Shown here piece by piece: positions 19,984 through 30,834 of a DNA stretch of 64,000 bases. Each line of letters starts with the position of its first letter. The stretch's first letter is position 1. Made by a program: the position numbers and the translations under genes. The notes below the pieces were generated by a model. It was not told the DNA's origin. It made no database searches and saw only the letters and a list, made by a program, of their open reading frames with translations. The stretch lies in the NCBI RefSeq assembly GCF_963668475.1, contig NZ_OY764544.1, positions 124,001 to 188,000 on the forward strand. Direction: 5' to 3'. The DNA comes from an uncultured Methanospirillum sp. GTDB lineage: Archaea; Halobacteriota; Methanomicrobia; Methanomicrobiales; Methanospirillaceae.

Positions 19984-21090
19984 CTATCCCGTTGAAAACC
20001 GGTTCCTGATATCATGGGGTGAGAGGGAAATATTTGGTGCAGTACTATTGCCTGGTTCAATAACCACGTGAATAAACCGGGGCCCCTCCGGAAGACTACT
20101 CCAGGCAGCTTTGAGTTCTTCTGCTGAATGTACTTTTATTGTATGAATAATTCCATTAGCCTTCGCAATTAGTTCGAGATCAATCGTCTGATATGCAGGT
20201 GAGCACTGGTCTCCGGTACTTCCATATACCCCGTTGTCAAGGCACACGATGGTTAGATTTTTCGGATTTGTGGCAGTTACAACTGGGAGGATGGCAGTTC
20301 CGAGCAGGCTACCGTCACCATCAAGTACAATGACCTGATCGCTGGTTACCAGGGAAATTCCGAGACCGATTGGTGTCGCCTGGGTGTATGATCCAAGCAT
20401 GTAGAAATTTCTGTCACGATCCCGGGCAGCATAGAGTTCCTTTGATGGGACTCCGATGTTTGAAACAACAAACTCATTTTGTAATAGTTCTGCTATCGTG
20501 TTGATAGCATCTGCCCGCTTCATCTCCGGCTTTTTGAATTCACCGGTGTAGGTTAAGGATGTTCGCCGTTCTCGTGGTTGAAACTGGCATCGTTTAGCAG
20601 GGGCATCTCCCTCCCAGACCTGTGGAGATATCAGGGCAACGTGGGGCCGACGTTTCTCATATGCATCATTAATCACATCTTTGATCTTGTGGATGTCTTC
20701 TGGTGTGAGAATTCGTGTATACGCGATCCCATAGAGATCAAGAAGGTCTGGAATCTTTTCGTTAAACGGGATCTGAGCTGCAATCTTCTCCTGATAGTAT
20801 CCCCGCCAGCTTGCAAGAATGGGGAGAGGAAGACCATATAACGCTGGCAGCGTCAGAAGAGCATTGAGAGAATTACCAAGTCCTGAACTCTGCATCTGAA
20901 GGATGCATCGTGCATTCATGAGAGAGATACCAGAACAGACACCAACTCCATCTTCTTCACGTGAGATGGTAATGTACCTGAACTCATCCTCAAGTACCAT
21001 ACAAAGATCTTTTGTCCTGTCGCATGGGAGAGAGACGACATACTCAATCCCTTCGGTGTGCAAAATCCGGGCAACCTGTTCCTCATACAT
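19984..21090 (-). CDS. comDE: Sulfopyruvate decarboxylase, fused alpha and beta subunits
   Basis: This thiamine-diphosphate enzyme converts sulfopyruvate to sulfoacetaldehyde and CO2, a late step of coenzyme M synthesis. In Methanocaldococcus the subunits ComD and ComE are separate; here both are one 368-residue chain. The alpha part (about 1-165) carries the Glu pair of SREEDG (45-46), expected to activate the cofactor. The beta part (about 188-368) carries the ThDP/Mg motif GDG at 258-260 with Asn286 downstream. It is the last gene of a six-gene overlapping operon and overlaps cysteate synthase by eight bases. Confidence 0.94.
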   Translation of the reverse strand: MYEEQVARILHTEGIEYVVSLPCDRTKDLCMVLEDEFRYITISREEDGVGVCSGISLMNARCILQMQSSGLGNSLNALLTLPALYGLPLPILASWRGYYQEKIAAQIPFNEKIPDLLDLYGIAYTRILTPEDIHKIKDVINDAYEKRRPHVALISPQVWEGDAPAKRCQFQPRERRTSLTYTGEFKKPEMKRADAINTIAELLQNEFVVSNIGVPSKELYAARDRDRNFYMLGSYTQATPIGLGISLVTSDQVIVLDGDGSLLGTAILPVVTATNPKNLTIVCLDNGVYGSTGDQCSPAYQTIDLELIAKANGIIHTIKVHSAEELKAAWSSLPEGPRFIHVVIEPGNSTAPNISLSPHDIRNRFSTG

Positions 21091-22354
21091 ATCTGTTCAC
21101 CCACTCTTTCACGAACTGGATAACTTTTTCGCTCTCGGTATTCTGAGTAACTTCGAGATCAGGTATATGAACGTAGGTCTTCATTTCGCTATGGATTCTC
21201 TCGTATCCTCCACCTGTAATAGCCAGAAGAATACTCTCGTCTTTCCTCATTACTCCTGATTGCACGGCCCTGATAAGTCCAGCAACACAGACTGCAGCTG
21301 CGGGATCAAGGTCAATACCCTCCAGATCTTTGAAATGCCCTCCAGCGGCTTTTGCTTCTTCTGTTGTTGCTGTGGCCATCAGCCCGTCTGTTGCAGTCAG
21401 GGCATCGAAAACACCTCCGGAGATTCCATATGGGGGTACACGGTTGGTGAGTACATCTGCGTATACCTGGGATATTGCATCTTTTGGATCTTTCATATCA
21501 TCAGCAATAATTTCCCGGCGTCCAGCCTGATACGCATTCGCCATCGGAATAAATGGCTCGTTCTGGATTAACAGCAGACGTGGAAGGTGTGATCCGAATC
21601 GGCCATCTTCAACCAGCCTCATTGAGGCTTCCCATGCTGCAATTCCTCCGGTTCCGCTTCCAACAGCCTGAACGTACCAATCAGGAAGGTGATCCATGGT
21701 CACTGTCCCTTCGAGCATCATAGTACCCATCCCATCCCGGCGTGCAACATTTTTTGCACCGCCCTCCGGATATACTCCGGGAAGTGTGCAAATCATGTTA
21801 CCCAGGTTAATGGCGTCTGTATAATCGCCATCAACAGTTATGAGGAGGAGATCATCTGCTGGTGTACTAGTCCATATCCTATCTCTGGCTTTTGCCGGAA
21901 CAACAACGATTACTGGTTTTCCGGTCTTAGTTGACACCTCGGCAAATGCCCTTCCAGTATTACCGGCCGATGCAACAAGGATCACACCTTCGGCCCTTTC
22001 TGCCAGCCGCACCATGGTTGGCAAAGCCTCGAACTCCTTGAATGATCCACTGGTGACATATGCGTTACGTTCTGGCCAGTACCCGGCAAAGGCTATCCAT
22101 AGATCCGTCAGACCAAGTTCACGTGCTAGACCTGAACTTTTGTAGCAGATAGGACCAGACCGGGTAGGGAGATTACCATCAACCGGAAGCCAGTCAGCAA
22201 ATCTGAATAAACCTGGAAGATCGCGGATAACCAATTGCGACGTCGTGTATTCAGCCCTGATAAGCCCTGAGCAACCCGACGGACAGGTCAGCTGATATGT
22301 ATCAGGAAACCTCATACCACATACCGGGCAGAATAACTGATATCTTGAAGTCAT
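21083..22354 (-). CDS. Cysteate synthase, PLP-dependent
   Basis: This 423-residue enzyme of the threonine-synthase fold makes L-cysteate from O-phosphoserine and sulfite. That is the entry to coenzyme M in Methanosarcinales and Methanomicrobiales. The PLP lysine is Lys106 in SGSFKEFEA. The phosphate-cradle loop SAGNTG is at 129-134. An N-terminal zinc-ribbon-like group (Cys9, Cys12, Cys24, Cys28) is present. True threonine synthase is the main alternative, but position directly ahead of comDE, with an eight-base overlap, makes cysteate synthase much more likely. It overlaps the upstream marker-16 gene by four bases. Confidence 0.92.
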   Translation of the reverse strand: MTSRYQLFCPVCGMRFPDTYQLTCPSGCSGLIRAEYTTSQLVIRDLPGLFRFADWLPVDGNLPTRSGPICYKSSGLARELGLTDLWIAFAGYWPERNAYVTSGSFKEFEALPTMVRLAERAEGVILVASAGNTGRAFAEVSTKTGKPVIVVVPAKARDRIWTSTPADDLLLITVDGDYTDAINLGNMICTLPGVYPEGGAKNVARRDGMGTMMLEGTVTMDHLPDWYVQAVGSGTGGIAAWEASMRLVEDGRFGSHLPRLLLIQNEPFIPMANAYQAGRREIIADDMKDPKDAISQVYADVLTNRVPPYGISGGVFDALTATDGLMATATTEEAKAAGGHFKDLEGIDLDPAAAVCVAGLIRAVQSGVMRKDESILLAITGGGYERIHSEMKTYVHIPDLEVTQNTESEKVIQFVKEWVNRYV

Positions 22355-23577
22355 AACCAGAACTCTCCTTTTTGAATCAATTTCTTCATCTGTCTGCAGA
22401 TCTTTTCGCCCCTCTGTCGGTCAGATTGCCGAAGCACAATCGGAATATTTCCTTCAGGGAGAGCGAGTGAACCGAAGTCTCCCGTGTATACCGTTCCCCT
22501 GCAGAGGTGCACACATGTACCGCAGGTAAAGCAACGTGCATGACTGATCTCTCCTGATTCCCTGATGGCATCAACAGGACAGGATTTTTTTACTAGACAT
22601 GGGTCACATCTGATACATCCGGCTGGATCATATCTGATGGTCCGTGCAGTTCCGCTCCAGACCCGATCGTACGAACTGCATGATATCTGCTGCCTATCAG
22701 CGATGTCCATTACCGGCATCGCGATAGTGGCATCTCTGATCAGAAGTGAGGAGATAACTGATTCATCAACAAGGGGAATCGCTGTACCGATACTTGTCAG
22801 GCATTCCGGTCCGGCAGATGTGAGAAATCCGCCGCAATAATCAGGATCCATGGCAGCCATCTCTCCATGAACCGCAATGTTTGGACGCATATTACTGCTC
22901 CGGGTTCCCTGGCCGATAACATATCCAACTCCTCCATTGACCAGAATGGGTGTTCCGGATGAGAGGAACCGCAGTGTTGGATCATTTTCTATTGGATTTA
23001 TTTCACCACATCCGGAAACCGTCGCCTCATTGCTCTTTCCAGCTAGTGGATTTGCTGAGAAGATTGTACTCACCGGTTTTTCAGATCTGTTGATGATCGC
23101 TGTATAGTTTTTAAAAGCACTTCGGGTGGTAAAGAGCCGTGCATGGGGCAGATCATGGCCTGAAATATCGGCCTGATATGGTCTACCTTCTGCAGTAACT
23201 TCAACATGGAGTTCCTGATCAGCGATGATGTCCCTGAAGAGGTGTCCTCCTCCATAGGTTGGAGGAGCATGTGCCGTTCCGTACACGATGAGATCAACCA
23301 GCCCGAGACGTTCATTTGGGCATGGTCCAGGAATTGCCGGAACACCATTCAGGGTTACGGTGTCAGCACGAAGAAATGTTCCAGGAGGGGAAACGGGAAC
23401 TGAAAGGACAGCATAGGTGCCTGACATAACCCCACATGTTCCACAAGTAACAACATCCACATCCCTGAGAAGTTTATCAGGTTCCCTTTCATCGACCTGC
23501 TTCTTGAACTCACTTGCAGTGAGAACCACAGCACATTTGTTCCTGATCCGTTCTCGGATCTCGTCCAGCCTGGTCAT
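22351..23577 (-). CDS. Methanogenesis marker 16-type metalloprotein (DUF39 plus ferredoxin domain)
   Basis: This 408-residue protein has a DUF39 domain over about residues 1-310 and a two-cluster ferredoxin domain at the C-terminus (CIRCDPCLVKKSCPVDA and CFTCGTCVHLCRG). DUF39 proteins are related to the enzyme that turns aspartate semialdehyde into homocysteine with sulfide. A CGTC pair at residues 45-48 could be the reactive or sulfur-carrying site. The DUF39/4Fe-4S layout matches what is called methanogenesis marker 16, whose function is not established to my knowledge. It is coupled to cysteate synthase and to the Fe-S gene by four-base overlaps, which suggests a role in sulfur transfer. 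Confidence 0.85.
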   Translation of the reverse strand: MTRLDEIRERIRNKCAVVLTASEFKKQVDEREPDKLLRDVDVVTCGTCGVMSGTYAVLSVPVSPPGTFLRADTVTLNGVPAIPGPCPNERLGLVDLIVYGTAHAPPTYGGGHLFRDIIADQELHVEVTAEGRPYQADISGHDLPHARLFTTRSAFKNYTAIINRSEKPVSTIFSANPLAGKSNEATVSGCGEINPIENDPTLRFLSSGTPILVNGGVGYVIGQGTRSSNMRPNIAVHGEMAAMDPDYCGGFLTSAGPECLTSIGTAIPLVDESVISSLLIRDATIAMPVMDIADRQQISCSSYDRVWSGTARTIRYDPAGCIRCDPCLVKKSCPVDAIRESGEISHARCFTCGTCVHLCRGTVYTGDFGSLALPEGNIPIVLRQSDRQRGEKICRQMKKLIQKGEFWL

Positions 23578-24317
23578 TGAATCCTGATATCCTCTACCCG
23601 TACATGGAGCCCGTTCTTTGTGCCCATGACCATATTCACGACACCTGTATGCCCGATATTCATCATGCAGAAACCTGGAAGAAACCGCATTCTCTTTCCA
23701 AATACCGGCTCATTCCTTGAAGGGATGGCGATTCCTTCAAACCCTATCATATGATATGCTTCCAGATCTTTTACCTCACGTCCCCGTGAATATGCAGGTC
23801 CGACTACATGGCCGGTAATAAGTCCGGAGACTTTACTTGCCGTGATGACCTGCACTACATGCTGCACAGGGCAACCTGCTCCCATCGGTCTTCCGGTGAT
23901 GATGTCGCCTGACTTGATCTCCCACCGTTCAACCATATCCGGCCTGAAGGGAAGCAGAAATTTTCGTGCTGAAAATTCACCCGGGAGCGGGAGAAGGATA
24001 AAATCTAGCGGATTTCCAAGAATATCTGTATCTGGAATCTGGTCCAGATTCCGTGAAGGAGGAACGCTGCTGATGTTTTGTTGTTGGTAGTCTGGTGAAG
24101 AACCGGATGAAGAATCTGTTTGATAAAAGGGACAGTCGACCATTCTTGCTGTACCGGCTGAGATCTCATCCATAAATGCCGTACAGGATTTGTGTCCGCA
24201 TGCCCCGCAGTCACGACCGGGTGGAGTCCAGATTGAAGGTTTTGTAGTCAGCTTTCCTCCCTGGTCTGATTTTCCTGTCAGATTACTCACCTCTGAAGAG
24301 GTAATCAGCTCCGTCAA
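23574..24317 (-). CDS. Fe-S domain protein of the coenzyme M operon
   Basis: This is a 247-residue protein. The N-terminal motif DCGACGHKSC, with a later DCPFY, gives Cys37, Cys40, Cys45 and Cys62. That pattern is the Fes/PF04060 type that binds a 4Fe-4S cluster in corrinoid Fe-S proteins and related electron carriers. The rest (about 85-245) is a beta-rich domain with GAGCPVQHVV, HVVGPAYSRG and GFCMMNIGHTGVVN that I cannot assign. It overlaps the upstream NTPase gene by 35 bases and the downstream gene by four. It may pass electrons or a cluster to the DUF39 protein; that is inferred from context. Confidence 0.8.
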   Translation of the reverse strand: MTELITSSEVSNLTGKSDQGGKLTTKPSIWTPPGRDCGACGHKSCTAFMDEISAGTARMVDCPFYQTDSSSGSSPDYQQQNISSVPPSRNLDQIPDTDILGNPLDFILLPLPGEFSARKFLLPFRPDMVERWEIKSGDIITGRPMGAGCPVQHVVQVITASKVSGLITGHVVGPAYSRGREVKDLEAYHMIGFEGIAIPSRNEPVFGKRMRFLPGFCMMNIGHTGVVNMVMGTKNGLHVRVEDIRIQ

Positions 24318-25008
24318 GTTTCCTGATAACGCCGAAGTGGTTCTGCCAGCCGATAGATGTCTTTCCTATACATACCGTACAGACACCGAGTGGAGGTATC
24401 CCCCTGAGTGTGATAGATTTTGAATCCGTCACCTCCGGCCCTTCACTGATCGCCCTGATCAGGAACCGAAGCCCGGTCCCTTGGATGGCATTCGTCTCAA
24501 CGATCTCGATCCCGTTACTAATCCCTTTTATCTTCTCTCTGAAGACCTCTTTTTCGGCCTGGGTCACAAGATCGATTCGTGTGACCACAGCAATATCAGC
24601 GAGTGCTATCATCGGGGCCATCTTGACTGGAGAATGAATTCCTGATACAGCCGACAGGACAACGATGCCGAGTGACTGGGTGGTATATGGTGTGCAGCGA
24701 AGACAGAGCCCGGCACTCTCTACGATCAGAAAATCTGCGTTCTGTTCTGCTGCCCAGGTGATAGCGTCATCCATCACCATGATTCCTGCATGATCTGGAC
24801 AGAGGTCTCCGGAGTATACTTTCTTTGTCGGAATGTTGAACTCGGCAGCGAGTTCCTCATCCTCTGTTGCGATTACAACATCGATCTTCAGGTATGCGAA
24901 CCGCTGCTCGGGCATTGATCTTATGATCTGTCTGATAACTGCAGTCTTCCCTGTAGAAGGAGGCCCGGCTACTATGATAAACCGCATCAGATCAGGCCGG
25001 AACCGCAT
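24283..25008 (-). CDS. P-loop NTPase of the HypB/CobW/UreG type
   Basis: This 241-residue protein has Walker A GPPSTGKT at 15-22, an ESAGLCLRC segment in the switch region, and a TRIDL motif near 154 that resembles a guanine-recognition loop. C-terminal cysteines occur in GVCTVCIGK near 211. Enzymes of this class use GTP to place metals into nickel enzymes or cobalamin systems, and the Cys pairs would fit metal or cluster handling. It overlaps the ABC ATPase gene by 17 bases and the Fe-S gene by 35. I infer a maturation role for an enzyme of this operon; the client is unknown. Confidence 0.82.
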   Translation of the reverse strand: MRFRPDLMRFIIVAGPPSTGKTAVIRQIIRSMPEQRFAYLKIDVVIATEDEELAAEFNIPTKKVYSGDLCPDHAGIMVMDDAITWAAEQNADFLIVESAGLCLRCTPYTTQSLGIVVLSAVSGIHSPVKMAPMIALADIAVVTRIDLVTQAEKEVFREKIKGISNGIEIVETNAIQGTGLRFLIRAISEGPEVTDSKSITLRGIPPLGVCTVCIGKTSIGWQNHFGVIRKLDGADYLFRGE

Positions 25009-25771
25009 TCGTGATCAATTCGCCTGCCCTGATCATCTCCCTGACACGGGCGATTGCAGCGTCGTACGCAAGCATCTGCTTGAGAGCTGACTGCTCTGAT
25101 CCATTCGGAGTGATAACTTTTACGACTGCACCATCCTGCATAACGATCCGGCGGTCAGAGAGGAGAGAAACAAGAGGATCATGGGTTACAAAGAGCAGAG
25201 CCTTGTGGTACTGGCGTAGTGCGTCAATAACCCGGTCTTTAAAAATTCCTGCATTCTCCACTTCATCGAGCAAAATAATCGGGGTATTTGAGATGAGAAT
25301 AGCATCAGCAACCATGAGTGAGCGGGTCTGCCCTCCAGAGAGCTGTGTCATCCTGACCTTCCGGCGAATAGCCTCCCCGGTAAACTGGTTTGCAAGTGAA
25401 ACCGTCTCATCTATCAGATCCTGACCCTGATATCCCCGTGACTTTGTATGCATAAGAAGGAATTCTTCAACAGTGAGATCACAGAGGCATCGTGTATTCT
25501 GGGTTATCATTGCCACCGGCTTTCTTGCAGGATCCCTGATGAAATGTTCAGGAGGCACCTCTCCGTTCACCAGAATCTGCCTGCCGGTGACTGTGTCCCT
25601 GCTGGCAAATATCTCGATATCATTGATGAGGGCACTCTTTCCTGATCCGGTCGGGCCAACGATGGAGATTGTATCCCCTGGTTTTATTCGAATCTCATCA
25701 AATCCCTCAGATACTCCATTTCTATTTGTACCAGATAGGATGGTTATCTCATGAATGATATCTTCAGGCAT
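24992..25771 (-). CDS. Soluble ABC-type ATPase, first gene of the coenzyme M operon
   Basis: This 259-residue ABC ATPase has Walker A GPTGSGKS (39-46), Q-loop QNTRCLC (91-97, with two Cys), signature LSGGQ (144-148) and Walker B ending LLDE (Glu170). No transmembrane partner is encoded nearby, so a transporter role is doubtful. Soluble relatives include methyl-CoM reductase component A2 and SufC-like cluster assembly ATPases. It is about half the size of A2, which has two ABC domains. No Shine-Dalgarno site is seen before the ATG. The Cys pair in the Q-loop is unusual and could link nucleotide state with a metal or sulfur species. Confidence 0.85.
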   Translation of the reverse strand: MPEDIIHEITILSGTNRNGVSEGFDEIRIKPGDTISIVGPTGSGKSALINDIEIFASRDTVTGRQILVNGEVPPEHFIRDPARKPVAMITQNTRCLCDLTVEEFLLMHTKSRGYQGQDLIDETVSLANQFTGEAIRRKVRMTQLSGGQTRSLMVADAILISNTPIILLDEVENAGIFKDRVIDALRQYHKALLFVTHDPLVSLLSDRRIVMQDGAVVKVITPNGSEQSALKQMLAYDAAIARVREMIRAGELITNAVPA

Positions 25772-25861
25772 ATAGGGGAAGATAGAACTACTAACAATAA
25801 GATGCTTTTGCCTACTTTTAAGAAAATGTGGCGCTTAATACAAACATTATATCTATAAATA

Positions 25862-25873
25862 ATACAATTGTAT
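25862..25873. promoter_or_regulatory. Perfect palindrome between TATA region and start of the HTH regulator
   Basis: ATACAATTGTAT is a perfect 12-base palindrome lying four bases before the ATG at 25877. A TATA-like run (ATTATATCTATAAATA, 25847-25862) sits just upstream, so transcription should begin at or near the ATG, giving a leaderless or near-leaderless message. A dimeric repressor here would block RNA polymerase. The regulator gene and the divergent coenzyme M operon share this 105-base gap, so both could be controlled. No binding evidence is available. Confidence 0.45.
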
Positions 25874-25876
25874 TGT

Positions 25877-26365
25877 ATGTTCTCTCGGGCAATCTTCAGA
25901 CAGGAGTTTAAACAGGCACTTGAAGAGGCACTGGATAGGAAACAGATAAGCCTGAAAGAGCTAGCAGAACTTGCGAAAATCCCCGTTGCAACAATCTACA
26001 AGATCACATCAGGTGAACGTGACCCCCGCCTCTCCACAGTGCGTGCGATCGTCCAGGCGCTTGAGCCATTTGACCAGGATACAATTGCGATCATAGCTGC
26101 CAAGTTCCTGCTTGATGAGATTGGCAATCAGACGATCTCTCTTGACGGGAAGAAATATCGGATCAAAGGATATCCGGCTCACACCATGGAAGATTGCATC
26201 GTAGCTGCTGTCCGGGCAGAAAAAGAGGGAGCAGCAGGACTTATCTGTGCTCCAATCCTGGCTGCCCTTATCGAGCGGATCGTTGATATTCCTGTTGTTA
26301 TCTTAAAACCTGATATCTCTTCATACGAAGAGGCTATCAAATCCCTGACACGCCAACTTGAATGA
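25877..26365 (+). CDS. XRE-type HTH transcriptional regulator with PrpR-N-like C-terminal domain
   Basis: From the ATG at 25877 the protein is 162 residues. A TTG nine bases upstream lies inside the palindrome and is less likely. An HTH of the XRE/Cro type spans about residues 8-62 (SLKELAELAKIPVATIYKIT). The C-terminal half has the pattern AVRAEKEGAAGLICAPI, then IPVVILKPD, resembling PrpR-N sensory domains that bind small ligands. It is divergent from the six-gene coenzyme M operon and is the best candidate for its regulator. No Shine-Dalgarno site is visible. Confidence 0.85.
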   Translation: MFSRAIFRQEFKQALEEALDRKQISLKELAELAKIPVATIYKITSGERDPRLSTVRAIVQALEPFDQDTIAIIAAKFLLDEIGNQTISLDGKKYRIKGYPAHTMEDCIVAAVRAEKEGAAGLICAPILAALIERIVDIPVVILKPDISSYEEAIKSLTRQLE

Positions 26366-26971: not shown

Positions 26972-29900
26972 TCACTTCTTCTGAAGTTTGAACCTGTCTG
27001 CCTGAACTCTCAACCGACTGGCAAGGTCTGCAATATCATGGGATGAATGAGCAATCTCTGAAGTAGATGTACTTGCTTCTTCCACGCTTGCAGAGACCTC
27101 AACCATCCGTTCCAGGTTTTCAGAACTCTCACTGCTGAGCATATCGATACCCTTCATAACCTGCTCCATGAGTTCACGCTCCTCGCTGGTTGCCCGGGTT
27201 ATCTTTGCCATCTCATCAGTGATCTCTCCGACCACCTGTGTAATACTGCCAAGAGCACTGATCGTCTGGCTTACACTGTCGATACCTGATTGAATCTCGG
27301 TATACTGGAGCTGAATGGATTCAACAGTCTCACCAGAACTTTTCTGTATCGAGTGGATGAGTTCCTCAATCTGTCCGGTTGCGACCTTTGACTGCCCGGC
27401 AAGGTTCTTGACCTCCTGTGCAACAACAGCGAACCCACGTCCATGCTCACCTGCCCGGGCGGCCTCTATTGCGGCATTGAGAGCGAGGAGGTTCGTCTGA
27501 CTTGATATATCAGAAATCATCCTGACGATCTTATTGATCTCAAGCATCCGGGTGTTCAGTTCAGTGATCTGATCCATGCTCTTCGCACTGATCTCTCCGA
27601 CAGCTGACATCTTTTGTTCAGCTTCTCCACCAAGACGTTTCGCATCTTCTCCCTGCTTTGATGCGAGCTCTGCCTGTCCCATAAGGCTCTCGACCGTTGT
27701 GCCGATCTCACCAACTGATAATGAGAGGGTCTTTACCTCTTCAGACATGTGAAGAGTCTGATTCATCTGTTCTCTGGCACCTGAAGTAGAACCCTGAACA
27801 CGATCAAAAACACTGGTAATTATTGCTCTGATGGCATCGGTCCTGGTCAACGTCTGACCTGCTGTGTCTGAAAGACTCGTTATTGATCCCTCAAGTTCTG
27901 ATAATACTGTATTGATAGCGGTCAGGGCTGTATTGTAGTCTTCCTTGATCCGTGCAAGCGGATCATCTATTGAGGATGATGTAATCCTGGTAAGATCTCC
28001 GACAGCCATCTTTGCCATGGCATCTTCGAGTTCTTCGGCACTTTTGGCAAGGGCTTCAGATTTCCCCCTGGCATCGTCAAGCAGGCGGGCGACCTCCTGT
28101 TCTTTCTCCTTTCTTGTAGTGATGTCGTTGTACACTATCAGGAAGTTTTCCAGTGTTCCGGACCTGTTATGGATTGGGATCCCATATTGCTCAAGTGTTC
28201 GCAAGCCGATAGGGAATTGAATTGTAAGTTCACCGTACGTGGGTTTCTGATGGGTGATCAGTTCACGCAGACCGGTTCCTGAGTGTTCAATAACCTTTAT
28301 TCCACAGGGGTTTGTTCCGATGAGCTGCTCCCTGGTGAACCCGGTAAGGCTGATGTATGAATCATTGGTGACACGGATGTGTTGTTCCTCATCCACCAGC
28401 AGAATTGGCATAGGGAGTTGCTGCACAATAGTATTATTAAGGTGCTCCAGTTCTGCTAATTCCTGCTCGCCTTCCTTGCGGTCTAGATATGTTTTGAGCA
28501 TTTCTGCAAGCGAATTGATGAGATTTCGTTCTTCGAGAAGAAATGGCCCTTCATGCTCCTCAGGAGAGTCTTTGAGATAGACAATTGAGATTACTCCTTC
28601 TGTGCCTCCTTTTGTCCTGAACGTTGCTTCCTGTTTCCATCGTGTCTCCTGATAATTGGAAGTCTTTGCAAATTTCCCGGCATAAGAGATCTGAGCAGCG
28701 GTGATCTCGGGATATTGCCATCCTGGAGGGATCAATTCTGCTATTTCATGCAGAACCTGAAGGGTATCTTTGTTGTCGTCCTGGATGAGTGAAGCAGTTG
28801 AGTAAAAGAGTTTCTGCTCTTTCACTCTTTCTCCGAGATCATGCATCCGGGTTGCCAGCTCTTGTTCGTTCTCTTTGCGATCTATAAACGTCTTGAGCAT
28901 CTCTGCGAGCGAGTTAATGAGATTCCGCTCTTCAAGGAGGAATGGTCCTTCATGTTCCTCAGGACACTCTTTAAGGTACACGACAGAGATAATGCCCTCC
29001 TCTCCAGACCGGGTTATGAATCTTGCATCCTGCTTCCACCTGGTATCAACATAGGATGTTGTATTTACGACATTTCCCCTGTATGTTATCTGTGCTGCCG
29101 TGATCTCAGGGTACTGCCATCCCGGGGGAATAAGTTCTGCAATCTTCTGAAGTACTTCAGGGACATCTTTTGTGTCATCCTGGATGAGCGATGCGGTTGA
29201 GTAGAAAAGTTTCTGCTCTTTAACTCTCTCACCGAGATCATGCATCCTGATTGCAAGCAACTGCTCATTCTCTTTCCTGTCGATGAATGTTTTTAGCATC
29301 TCGACAAGCGAGTTGATTAGATTTCGTTCTTCCAGGAGGAATGGCCCTTCATACTCATGTTTCTGCTCTGAAAGGTATACCACCGAGATGACACCTTCTC
29401 CTCCAGATTTGGTCTTGAACTTTGCTTCCTGTTTCCATCGTGTCTCCTGGTAGGTTGGTGATTTTGCGACATTTCCTCCATATGTAATCTGTGCAGCGGT
29501 GATTTCCGGGTACTGCCATCCCGGAGGTATCAGTTCAGAAATTTTCTGGAGTACTTCCGGAACATCCTTACTATCATCTTGGATGAGCGATGCGGTTGAG
29601 TAGAAGAGTTTCTGCTCTTTCACTCTCTCACCGAGATCATGCATCCGGGTTGCCAGTTCCTGCTCATTCTCTTTCCTGTCAAGAAATGTTTTGAGCATCT
29701 CTGCGAGCGAGTTAATGAGATTCCGCTCTTCAAGGAGGAACGGCCCTTCATGTTCAGATGGACATTCCTGTAGGTATACTACCGATATTGAACCGTCAAC
29801 CCCGTGCTGAGTCCTGAATTGTGCCCTTTGGATCCATGGGGTTTCGATATAATTCTCAGTTGAGTACATTGCAGAATCATACCTGATAGAAGCGGCTGTG

Positions 29901-30571
29901 ATATCAGGATACTGCCATCCTGGAGGAATCAACTGGACAATATCTAGTAGAACTTCATCAGCAGGACGTGAATCATCCTGAATGAGTGATGCAGTTGAAT
30001 AGAACAATTTCTGCTCTTTTACCCGTTCGCCATAGTCGTGAAGCAGTTTCTGTCTTATCTGCTCTGCCTCATCCTGTGCTGAAACCCGGATGGTAATATC
30101 CTTGAAGATCAGGATGATCTCATTAACCTGATCCTTCTCACAGGGAACCCTATTGGTATATTGATCAAGGACTTTTCTACCTGCAGGAAAGTCTATGGCG
30201 ATAAATCCGGAGCCATCAGAATCCTGACCCGGGACCTCTGATACTGCAGTCTGATAAATGGATGGTATCGCTTCACTGAGTGGCCGATTTATCAGATCTC
30301 CTTCAGAGAGACCACTCATAGTGATAAATGAGGGATTTACTGATAGTATTTTGTATTGATCATCGGTGATGATAATCGGTTGCGGACTTGATCCAAAGAC
30401 CGCCTCCATCCTTTTACAGGTCTGTTCTCTTGCTTCAAACTCGCATTTAAGGTCATGAATCTTTTCGGTGAGGACCGGATCATCTGTCAAAGTGCTCTGC
30501 AAGATAAGTTCATCTGATAGGGTTCCATTTTTCAGATGAGTAAGTATTTTTGACAATGCCTGAGAGTCCAT
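26972..30571 (-). CDS. Soluble methyl-accepting chemotaxis receptor with four tandem sensor repeats
   Basis: The ATG at 30571 with AGGTGG five bases upstream is preferred over an upstream GTG, giving 1199 residues. PAS domain 1 is at about 60-160. Then come four consecutive copies of a 133-residue GAF-like unit, each opening with [19 protein letters not shown] (first residues 182, 315, 448, 581). PAS 2 (about 700-815), a HAMP-like segment, and a complete signalling domain with the receptor hairpin ([20 protein letters not shown]) follow. There is no membrane helix, so it should sense cytoplasmic cues. Signalling would require CheA and CheW; a cheW gene lies at 42165. Confidence 0.93.
28433..30028 (-). 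repeat. Four head-to-tail 399-base coding repeats inside the chemoreceptor
   Basis: The codons for ERVKEQ occur at 30011-30028, 29612-29629, 29213-29230 and 28814-28831, exactly 399 bases apart each time. Each unit contains [10 protein letters not shown], a variable stretch with one or two Trp, a VISVVYL strand, and [15 protein letters not shown]. Units 2 to 4 are closer to each other than to unit 1, as if they arose by recent duplication. The unit resembles the GAF-like region that precedes kinase or GGDEF outputs in other sensors. Confidence 0.9.
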
Positions 30572-30834
30572 AGAAACCACCTATAATATATGTAACACAA
30601 CGCAACTATTATATTATATTTCATAGAACTTAAGTTCCATGGATATGATAGGCGGCTAAAGCGCCGATATTTTATGTGACCATAGTAGTGAATTGAATTT
30701 TCTCTTCGAATTAAAAAATATCGCTCATATCAGTCATTCTCATTGATCACCAATATCTACTGAAAAATCTGACCGGAGTATTGTATGGCATATTTTTATA
30801 TGTCGAATGATGTGTTGTAAGAATAGTGGTAGGG

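What the first reader, a model, noticed from the sequence alone, without database searches (positions are those of the whole stretch)
19984..25771. Six-gene overlapping operon joins four uncharacterised proteins to coenzyme M synthesis
Cysteate synthase and ComDE are known CoM enzymes. Directly upstream, each overlapping the next by 4 to 35 bases, are a marker-16 DUF39/ferredoxin protein, a separate 4Fe-4S protein, a HypB/CobW-like NTPase and a soluble ABC ATPase with a Cys pair in its Q-loop. Unbroken overlap implies coordinated, perhaps stoichiometric production. Cysteate synthase needs sulfite and DUF39 proteins handle sulfide, so the four could form an ATP/GTP-driven sulfur-delivery or Fe-S assembly module for CoM. 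This is the best candidate in the window for an undescribed system.
Basis: partly seen in the sequence, partly recalled or inferred. Interest (0 to 1): 0.85.

Follow-up and report, generated by a model that had tools for sequence, protein, structure and literature searches.

The report
Coenzyme M operon with metal-handling trio
A methane-producing archaeon keeps its genes for making coenzyme M in one six-gene operon; three of the six are known enzymes of that pathway, and the other three look like an energy-driven metal-handling unit that usually travels with the pathway but whose task nobody has yet shown.

Summary
The six overlapping minus-strand genes are real and conserved. The reading of them is only partly right. 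The 'uncharacterised' marker-16 protein is ComF (MMP16), which published genetics identify as the main coenzyme M synthase, so three of the six genes are known CoM enzymes. The remaining trio is an orphan ABC ATPase, a UreG/HypB-like GTPase and a COG2000-type 4Fe-4S protein. Its colocalisation with CoM genes is already in print, with role unknown. New here: (1) GTPase and Fe-S protein occur in the same 37 of 80 selected genomes. (2) The trio sits mostly with cysteate synthase (47 of 53 trio genomes), but also in one operon with ComA-ComB-ComC, so it is not specific to the cysteate route. (3) Trio and ComF are separable both ways: four near-complete genomes of one genus read ABC-GTPase-FeS-CS-ComDE without ComF, while a Methanoculleus locus keeps the CoM enzymes with only a relic of the trio. 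(4) The GTPase has seven invariant Cys/His residues, and a paralogous GTPase-ABC pair sits beside heavy-metal-chelation or solute-binding genes. Most likely the trio loads a metal onto the Fe-S protein to support CoM synthesis; this is inferred. The ABC 'Cys pair' is not conserved.

The parts
24992..25771 (-). orphan ABC-type ATPase (259 aa), first gene of the operon; Walker A GPTGSGKS, LSGGQ, no permease gene in the operon
   Evidence: (PF00005 58 bits); Cys pair not conserved
24283..25008 (-). UreG/HypB/CobW-like GTPase (234 aa from the homologue-supported ATG at 24987), invariant CPDH, CLRC and C-terminal CxxC...H
   Evidence: (PF02492); model pLDDT 84, Foldseek best hits UreG and HypB
23574..24317 (-). 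COG2000-type 4Fe-4S protein; probable start GTG at 24290; N-terminal FeS domain (C-x2-C-x4-C-x16-C) and a beta-rich C-terminal domain with invariant Cys/His
   Evidence: (PF04060); C-terminal fold not identified; the COG2000 label comes from PMC12068725
22351..23577 (-). MMP16 / ComF, coenzyme M synthase (COG1900/HcyBio domain plus 8-Cys ferredoxin domain)
   Evidence: TIGR03287 529.5 bits; PF01837 323 bits; alignment A1
21083..22354 (-). cysteate synthase
   Evidence: TIGR03844 620.1 bits (cut-off 324.9)
19984..21090 (-). ComDE, fused sulfopyruvate decarboxylase
   Evidence: TIGR03845 and TIGR03846 over cut-off
25868..26365 (+). divergent HTH_3 (XRE-type) regulator with weak PrpR_N-like C-terminal similarity; relatives sit divergently beside the same operon, with or without the trio
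25772..25867 (.). divergent intergenic region with perfect palindrome AATACAATTGTATT just upstream of the regulator start; TACTATAGTA-type palindromes upstream of the regulator in L098, L101, L105, L110, a different one in L049, none of 10 bases or more in the region for L033, L072, L073, L086, L113, L114 (candidate operator)

Best explanation
A coenzyme M operon. SHOWN by family membership and by published work on relatives: cysteate synthase makes cysteate, ComDE makes sulfoacetaldehyde, and MMP16/ComF turns it into CoM. INFERRED: the other three genes are one accessory module. The UreG/HypB-like GTPase holds a transition metal at its switch-region CPDH/CxRC site and releases it on nucleotide hydrolysis to the COG2000 Fe-S protein, whose C-terminal domain has an invariant 2-Cys/2-His set besides its 4Fe-4S cluster. 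The orphan ABC ATPase drives docking or transfer between them. The loaded Fe-S protein then feeds the pathway, most simply as a sulfur or electron carrier for the COG1900 enzyme (ComF, or L-ASST where ComF is lost). The GTPase-ABC pair is a reusable engine: in paralogous loci the Fe-S client is replaced by a DUF364 heavy-metal-chelation protein or a solute-binding protein.
For: Seven GTPase Cys/His positions invariant in all rows with letters there (42/42 to 44/44). Four cluster Cys plus C149, H153, C217, H223 of the Fe-S protein invariant in 61 of 61 rows, some rows being repeat assemblies. UreG and HypB are the top structural matches, and CPDH aligns with the UreG CP-H motif. GTPase (339 bits or more) and full-length Fe-S protein (176 bits or more) in the identical 37 of 80 genomes. 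Ten paralogous GTPase-ABC pairs keep CPDH, CxRC and CxxC; 6 of 10 are followed by DUF364 proteins and 4 of 10 preceded by SBP_bac_6 proteins. All four genomes with two MMP16 copies over cut-off hold one of them beside a trio without CS there; the other copy sits with CS and ComDE, without trio in three (G289, G226, G179) and with a second trio in G246. A cysteine desulfurase lies between GTPase and Fe-S gene in G009. A degraded trio in one genome without CS and MMP16 (G003).
Against: No biochemical evidence. GTPase score for the HypB equivalog is 52 bits against a cut-off of 121.2, so metal, nucleotide and client are unknown. Five of 26 selected genomes without MMP16 keep the trio, one of them (G182) without cysteate synthase either, and G261 has a second, lone trio with no CoM gene beside it (L169). 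Many CoM-makers lack the trio. No fold was identified for the C-terminal domain of the Fe-S protein, so its Cys/His set being one metal site is untested. The cysteine desulfurase insertion is absent in the related G039.
Confidence: 0.34

Rival explanations
1. The trio is an ATP/GTP-driven electron injector: the ABC ATPase and GTPase power transfer of low-potential electrons through the Fe-S protein to the ferredoxin domain of ComF, whose reaction needs 2 or 4 electrons.
For: Published stoichiometry of the ComF step needs 2 or 4 electrons (PMC12068725 Introduction); the FeS domain is that of the CFeSP large subunit and RnfB; trio and MMP16 lie together without CS in the extra MMP16 loci.
Against: Trio kept without MMP16 in G056, G285, G261, G290; 22 of 54 MMP16 genomes of the selected 80 lack the trio. 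The GTPase metal motifs are unexplained.
Confidence: 0.2
2. The trio delivers sulfur: a persulfide on the Fe-S protein is handed to ComF or L-ASST, taking the place of free sulfide.
For: Cysteine desulfurase inserted in the G009 operon; the published ComF mutant is a CoM auxotroph only without sulfide, so sulfur supply matters; extra Cys residues in the Fe-S protein.
Against: No sulfurtransferase or rhodanese domain in the trio; a desulfurase was recognised in one locus only, and neighbours were not typed in most loci; a separate sulfur-trafficking protein, MA1715, is already known for L-ASST (paper Discussion).
Confidence: 0.2
3. The trio serves the sulfite-consuming first step common to both routes, for example as part of a sulfite source; that source is stated as unclear in print.
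For: Of 53 trio genomes, 50 have a sulfite-fixing enzyme, CS 47 or ComA 3; trio kept with CS when MMP16 is lost; sulfite source unclear (PMC6286981 passages).
Against: 19 of 55 CS genomes lack the trio; trio deleted from CoM operons of two Methanoculleus loci with CoM genes kept (the L110 relic is weak); nothing in the trio resembles a sulfur oxidoreductase.
Confidence: 0.1
4. The trio has a task outside CoM synthesis and is only co-regulated with it, for instance metal supply for methanogenesis at large.
For: G182 keeps an intact-looking trio with no CS and no MMP16 in the genome, and G261 has a like lone trio besides the one in its CoM operon; in 11 of 36 genomes with a trio-less MMP16 locus, many of them Methanothrix-type, the Fe-S gene lies elsewhere.
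Against: 36 of 37 trio genomes carry CS in the selected 80; only 8 of 169 MMP16-negative genomes among 294 have the Fe-S protein at E 1e-30.
Confidence: 0.12

Closest known systems
CoM biosynthesis gene neighbourhoods of Chadwick et al. 2025 (PMC12068725, Fig 2 legend)
   Same: MMP16/ComF and other CoM genes with an ATPase, a 'Ni2+ binding GTPase' and a COG2000 Fe-S protein
   Different: That legend leaves the trio's role open. Here it is shown to be separable from ComF in both directions, to occur with ComABC, and to have a paralogous GTPase-ABC pair with other partners. The paper's S1 figure and table were not seen.
UreG / HypB nickel-chaperone GTPases
   Same: Fold (Foldseek E 2.3e-11 to UreG 4hi0), P-loop, switch-I CP-H type motif, switch-II cysteine region
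   Different: Below both equivalog cut-offs; extra CxxC...H C-terminus; gene partner is an ABC ATPase and an Fe-S protein, not hydrogenase or urease genes
L-ASST (MA1821-MA1822), homocysteine-forming COG1900 enzyme
   Same: Same catalytic family (PF01837) and use of a ferredoxin partner; the own genome has a second PF01837 gene at G000:C1:3121814-3122827 that fits this type
   Different: MMP16 has its ferredoxin domain fused and scores far over the TIGR03287 cut-off; the paper names two subunits only for L-ASST
Corrinoid Fe-S protein large subunit and RnfB FeS domain
   Same: N-terminal 4Fe-4S domain of the COG2000 protein
   Different: Match ends after about 45 residues; the C-terminal domain was not matched to either by the searches run

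Membership tests
MMP16 / ComF (TIGR03287) | score over the curated cut-off, full-length | tested here: met
   529.5 bits against 363.95, profile 1-390 of 391
MMP16 / ComF (TIGR03287) | fused 8-Cys ferredoxin domain | tested here: met
   C321, C324, C327, C333, C349, C352, C355, C359 present and invariant in the 13 rows of A1; C324 is His in 11 of 81 rows of a wider set
MMP16 / ComF (TIGR03287) | CoM synthase activity | not testable with these tools
   shown genetically for the M. acetivorans homologue (PMC12068725), not for this protein
cysteate synthase (TIGR03844) | score over the equivalog cut-off | tested here: met
   620.1 against 324.9
ComDE sulfopyruvate decarboxylase | both subunit models over cut-off in one chain | tested here: met
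   TIGR03845 208.8/147.95 and TIGR03846 235.2/221.5
HypB (TIGR00073) | score over the equivalog cut-off | tested here: not met
   52 bits against 121.2
UreG (TIGR00101) | score over the equivalog cut-off | tested here: not met
   27.7 bits against 204.2
CobW/HypB/UreG nucleotide-binding superfamily (PF02492) | score over the gathering cut-off and matching fold | tested here: met
   48.2 against 20.7; best Foldseek hits UreG and HypB
CobW/HypB/UreG nucleotide-binding superfamily (PF02492) | metal binding coupled to GTP hydrolysis | not testable with these tools
   motifs only: invariant CPDH and CxRC, aligned with UreG CP-H
ABC transporter (importer or exporter) | partner transmembrane permease in the operon | tested here: not met
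   none of the six operon proteins has a permease domain in Pfam; permeases elsewhere not excluded
SufC Fe-S assembly ATPase / component A2 | family model over cut-off | tested here: inconclusive
   neither is among the best 25 of 164 NCBIfam families shown for the ABC protein
COG2000 Fe-S protein | PF04060 4Fe-4S domain plus conserved C-terminal domain | tested here: inconclusive
   PF04060 35.2 against 23 and a full-length family with 8 invariant Cys/His, but no COG library was on hand; the label is that of PMC12068725

The most novel reading that the evidence does not exclude
A UreG-like GTPase and an orphan ABC ATPase form a two-NTPase metal-insertion engine with swappable clients (COG2000 Fe-S protein, DUF364 protein, solute-binding protein). 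In the CoM operon it builds an undescribed metal-plus-4Fe-4S carrier that supplies the sulfur or electrons for the last step of coenzyme M synthesis and can work with either COG1900 enzyme.
Probability: 0.25. Interest if true: 0.82.

Novelty: new variant of a known kind. Interest (0 to 1): 0.5.

Why it matters
How sulfur, electrons and sulfite reach coenzyme M is still open, and ComF mutants behave differently at different sulfide levels. A conserved energy-using accessory module beside ComF, separable from it and lost or gained naturally in related genomes, gives a direct genetic handle on that question. The partner-swapping GTPase-ABC pair, if it is a metal-insertion engine, would be a new arrangement among metallochaperones.

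Tried and rejected
Tie to cysteate synthase: first supported (36 of 37 trio genomes in my selected 80, Fisher p about 1e-7), then rejected as exclusive after L065/G320, G170 (same assembly as G324) and G330 showed the trio with ComA and no CS. In G330 ComA is in two pieces on two contigs, each below the cut-off; in G170 the ABC gene lies beyond the contig end. The 80 genomes were chosen by me from the 294 (54 MMP16-positive, 26 negative), not drawn at random; the genomes behind loci were also my choice; all are phylogenetically related, so the p-values are only descriptive.

How the 53 are made up: 37 of the selected 80 plus G261, G290, G226, G289, G246, G179, G011, G170, G047, G320, G330, G339, G340, G341, G343, G344; repeat assemblies G323, G324 and G342 left out. 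In G011, G047 and G339 only the Fe-S gene was seen, not the whole trio. Neither route was found in G182, G047 (70% complete) and G343 (a MAG labelled Nitrospirae). The 13 ComA genomes are six of the 80 (one of them below the cut-off) plus G320, G321, G322, G170, G328, G329, G330; G325 repeats G035.

Tie to MMP16: among CS genomes of the 80 the trio is about as common without MMP16 (4 of 7) as with it (32 of 48).

Hits dropped before counting: GTPase matches of 45-58 bits (HypB-like), the 230-260 bit paralogues and the degraded 177-bit G003 copy; Fe-S matches under 40 bits (domain-only).

My guess that L055 carries ComABC beside the trio was wrong: those genes are SufC, an unassigned protein and NadA. 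A draft statement that the other MMP16 copy never has a trio was wrong for G246, which has a trio at both loci. A draft statement that ComF works without the trio in M. acetivorans was withdrawn: I did not test that genome for the trio.

Q-loop Cys pair as an Fe-S or sulfur site: rejected, not conserved. MMP16 cysteines do not separate trio from non-trio loci, apart from weak leanings such as C190 (44 of 44 against 30 of 37).

Fold of the Fe-S protein's C-terminal domain: Foldseek gave no match under E 0.001 and VIA-align best Z 5.1; the domain was not modelled alone; left open.

No handle that I could recognise lay in Methanobacteriota (Methanococcales, Methanobacteriales), and one search drew only the own order, so their trio status is untested here. 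Literature: (COG2000, methanogen, coenzyme M) found only PMC12068725; and the 8 papers listed gave nothing on the trio; nothing beyond these searches is claimed about what is in print. PMC12713407 (passages), PMC3146512 (abstract start and passages) and PMC10579272 (passages) did not discuss the trio in what I saw.

Recalled, from no call: that contig lengths 2542943 and 2820858 fit Methanoregula boonei and M. formicica and 3179916 fits Methanocella arvoryzae; that component A2 has two ABC domains; White 2019 on ComF (seen only as cited in the papers read). The 2957635-base contig of G019 equals the M. paludicola size printed in the PMC3146512 abstract.


Full report
WHAT IS THERE. ORF-level overlaps are 17, 35, 4, 4 and 8 bases; with homologue-supported starts the GTPase begins at 24987 (4-base gap after the ABC gene) and the Fe-S protein at a GTG at 24290 (8-base overlap). 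Curated models place three genes firmly in coenzyme M synthesis: MMP16 (TIGR03287, 529.5 bits), cysteate synthase (CS; TIGR03844, 620.1 bits) and fused ComDE (TIGR03845 and TIGR03846). The other three are an ABC-type ATPase without a permease in the operon, a CobW/HypB/UreG-type NTPase, and a protein with a PF04060 4Fe-4S domain. The nearest named MMP16 is 82% identical, in a Methanospirillum hungatei MAG; the own genome is one 3,926,859-base contig.

WHAT IS ALREADY KNOWN. Marker 16 is not an uncharacterised protein. Chadwick et al. 2025 (PMC12068725; abstract, Introduction, first part of Results, sections 10 and 12 and passages read) show that the M. acetivorans MMP16 mutant is impaired without CoM and is a CoM auxotroph without sulfide, and assign MMP16 as ComF. 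The Fig 2 legend of the same paper states that an ATPase, a Ni2+ binding GTPase and a COG2000 Fe-S protein are often colocalised with CoM genes with unknown role. So the association in the finding is in print; the trio's task is not, as far as reach.

CONSERVATION OF THE TRIO. A scan of species genomes with 13 aligned MMP16 proteins found 328 relatives, of which the best 80 were kept as named loci. In 43 of 80 the Fe-S gene is present, beside GTPase and ABC genes (ABC beyond the contig end in L034 and L062; a short GTPase match in L064): 28 loci with FeS-MMP16 co-directional (the window's type), 14 with CS-ABC-GTPase-FeS-ComD/E convergent to MMP16 (Methanolobus, Methanohalophilus, a Methanomassiliicoccus MAG, some Methanothrix-type MAGs), 1 convergent only. 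In 80 Halobacteriota genomes that I selected from 294, the trio-type GTPase (339 bits or more) and the full-length Fe-S protein (176 bits or more) occur in the same 37. In all 294, the Fe-S protein is in 76, of which 68 have MMP16 over cut-off; the 8 exceptions are G056, G182, G261, G285, G290, G039, G241 and G047. Of 36 genomes behind the 37 trio-less MMP16 loci, 11 have a full Fe-S gene elsewhere, one a partial copy, one only a relic.

NOT SPECIFIC TO THE CYSTEATE ROUTE. In the selected 80, 36 of 37 trio genomes have CS and none of 6 ComA genomes has the trio. Extending the search overturned an exclusive link: locus L065 reads ABC-GTPase-FeS-MMP16-ComA-ComB-ComC-ComDE (ComA 314.5 bits, cut-off 280; the ComB- and ComC-like proteins score below their equivalog cut-offs), and its genome G320 has ComA and no CS. 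G170 (GTPase-FeS-MMP16 at a contig end) is the same, and G330 has FeS-GTPase-ABC with ComA split over two contigs. In sum, of 53 distinct trio-bearing genomes searched for both routes (Fe-S gene alone seen in 3 of them), 47 have CS, 3 ComA only, 3 neither. Seen the other way, the trio is in 36 of 55 CS genomes of the selected 80 and in 3 of 13 ComA genomes; relatedness is not corrected for.

SEPARABLE FROM COMF IN BOTH DIRECTIONS. In genus g4 (same family as the window), G056, G285, G261 and G290 read ABC-GTPase-FeS-CS-ComDE with MMP16 missing from between Fe-S gene and CS (10 bases between Fe-S stop and CS in L113), and none has MMP16 over cut-off. Each has a single PF01837 protein, like the L-ASST-type copy of the own genome. 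G182 of the same genus has a trio with no CS, MMP16 or ComDE beside it and no CS or MMP16 in the genome; G261 has a like lone trio as a second copy; G177 has no Fe-S gene and no CS. Conversely, in Methanoculleus sp. FWC-SCC1 (L049) a stretch coding 31 residues at 84% identity to the Fe-S C-terminus lies between the divergent regulator and MMP16-CS-ComDE, and no other full Fe-S gene is found in that genome; L110 has a weaker 23-residue relic (61%, E 7.5e-4). So the trio was deleted there while the CoM genes stayed. G003, without CS and MMP16, keeps a truncated GTPase and a split ABC gene. All four genomes with two MMP16 copies over cut-off (G289, G226, G246, G179) have one copy beside a trio without CS (convergent in G179); the other copy sits with CS and ComDE, without trio in G289, G226 and G179 and with a second trio in G246. 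The module is an accessory, not a core enzyme, and seems able to move with MMP16.

WHAT THE TRIO LOOKS LIKE. The GTPase model (pLDDT 84) matches UreG and HypB best. C70, H73 (CPDH), C102, C105 (CLRC), C210, C213 and H224 are invariant (numbering of the 241-residue ORF), and CPDH aligns with the UreG CP-H motif. The Fe-S protein has an FeS domain like that of the corrinoid Fe-S protein and, besides the four cluster cysteines, C149, H153, C217 and H223 invariant in 61 of 61 rows (some of them repeat assemblies), in a beta-rich domain of unidentified fold. The ABC protein is ordinary in its motifs; its Cys pair is confined to the window's closest relatives.

A REUSED PAIR. Ten loci in nine of the 80 genomes, two of them in the own genome (G000:C1:1458880-1459554 and 1472042-1472722), carry a paralogous GTPase-ABC pair without the Fe-S gene. 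All ten keep CPDH, CxRC and CxxC; 6 are followed by a DUF364/DUF4213 'putative heavy-metal chelation' protein and 4 are preceded by an SBP_bac_6 protein; Peripla_BP_2 solute-binding genes lie near three of them, with weak matches near two more. This points to metal handling by the pair and to exchangeable partners. It is an inference from neighbourhood.

REGULATION. An XRE-type regulator is divergent to the operon in the window and beside the ABC gene in L033, L072, L073, L086, L098, L101, L105, L113, L114, L118, L168 and L170; it stays beside MMP16 where the trio is gone (L049, L110). Palindromes lie in the shared upstream region of six of the 13 regions looked at, counting only those near the regulator start. 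In these Methanomicrobiales loci trio and CoM genes thus share one control region.

MECHANISM AND CONFIDENCE. I commit to metal loading of the COG2000 protein by the GTPase, powered or gated by the ABC ATPase, in support of the sulfur or electron supply of CoM synthesis (0.34). Electron injection (0.2), sulfur delivery (0.2; a NifS-type desulfurase is inserted in the G009 operon but not in related G039), sulfite supply (0.1; source stated as unclear in PMC6286981, passages) and a task outside CoM (0.12; lone trios in G182 and G261) remain. Shown: gene identities, conservation, co-occurrence, separability. Inferred: everything about activity.

VERDICT. What is left is a real open problem with new constraints and a natural deletion series to test it. 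Interest 0.5.

Noticed in passing
G000:C1:1458880-1459554 and 1472042-1472722 (own genome, outside the window; L121, L122): Two paralogous GTPase-ABC pairs beside Peripla_BP_2 genes; one with a radical SAM protein (Cys spacing Cx5Cx2C, read by eye) and a DUF364 heavy-metal-chelation protein, the other with an SBP_bac_6 protein.
   Followed up: partly
L049 9870-9992, L110 5034-5102: Relics of the COG2000 Fe-S gene between the divergent regulator and MMP16 in Methanoculleus loci whose CoM genes are otherwise kept.
   Followed up: yes
L113, L114, L168, L170 (G056, G285, G261, G290): One genus has lost ComF/MMP16 from the operon but keeps trio, cysteate synthase and ComDE; natural ComF-less lineages that may rely on L-ASST or on CoM uptake.
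   Followed up: partly
L169 (G261) and L115 (G182): Lone trios, with no CoM gene beside them, in the same genus.
   Followed up: partly
L119 6965-8128 (G009): NifS/IscS-type cysteine desulfurase gene inserted between GTPase and Fe-S gene of the trio.
   Followed up: partly
window 26972-30580 (-): 1202-aa chemotaxis-type protein with four similar tandem repeats of about 140 residues ([20 protein letters not shown]...), seen in the translation.
   Followed up: no
L078: A contig labelled 'Nitrospirae bacterium' MAG carries the ABC-GTPase-FeS-MMP16 cassette with scores like those of the Methanosarcina loci; probably a misbinned archaeal contig.
   Followed up: no
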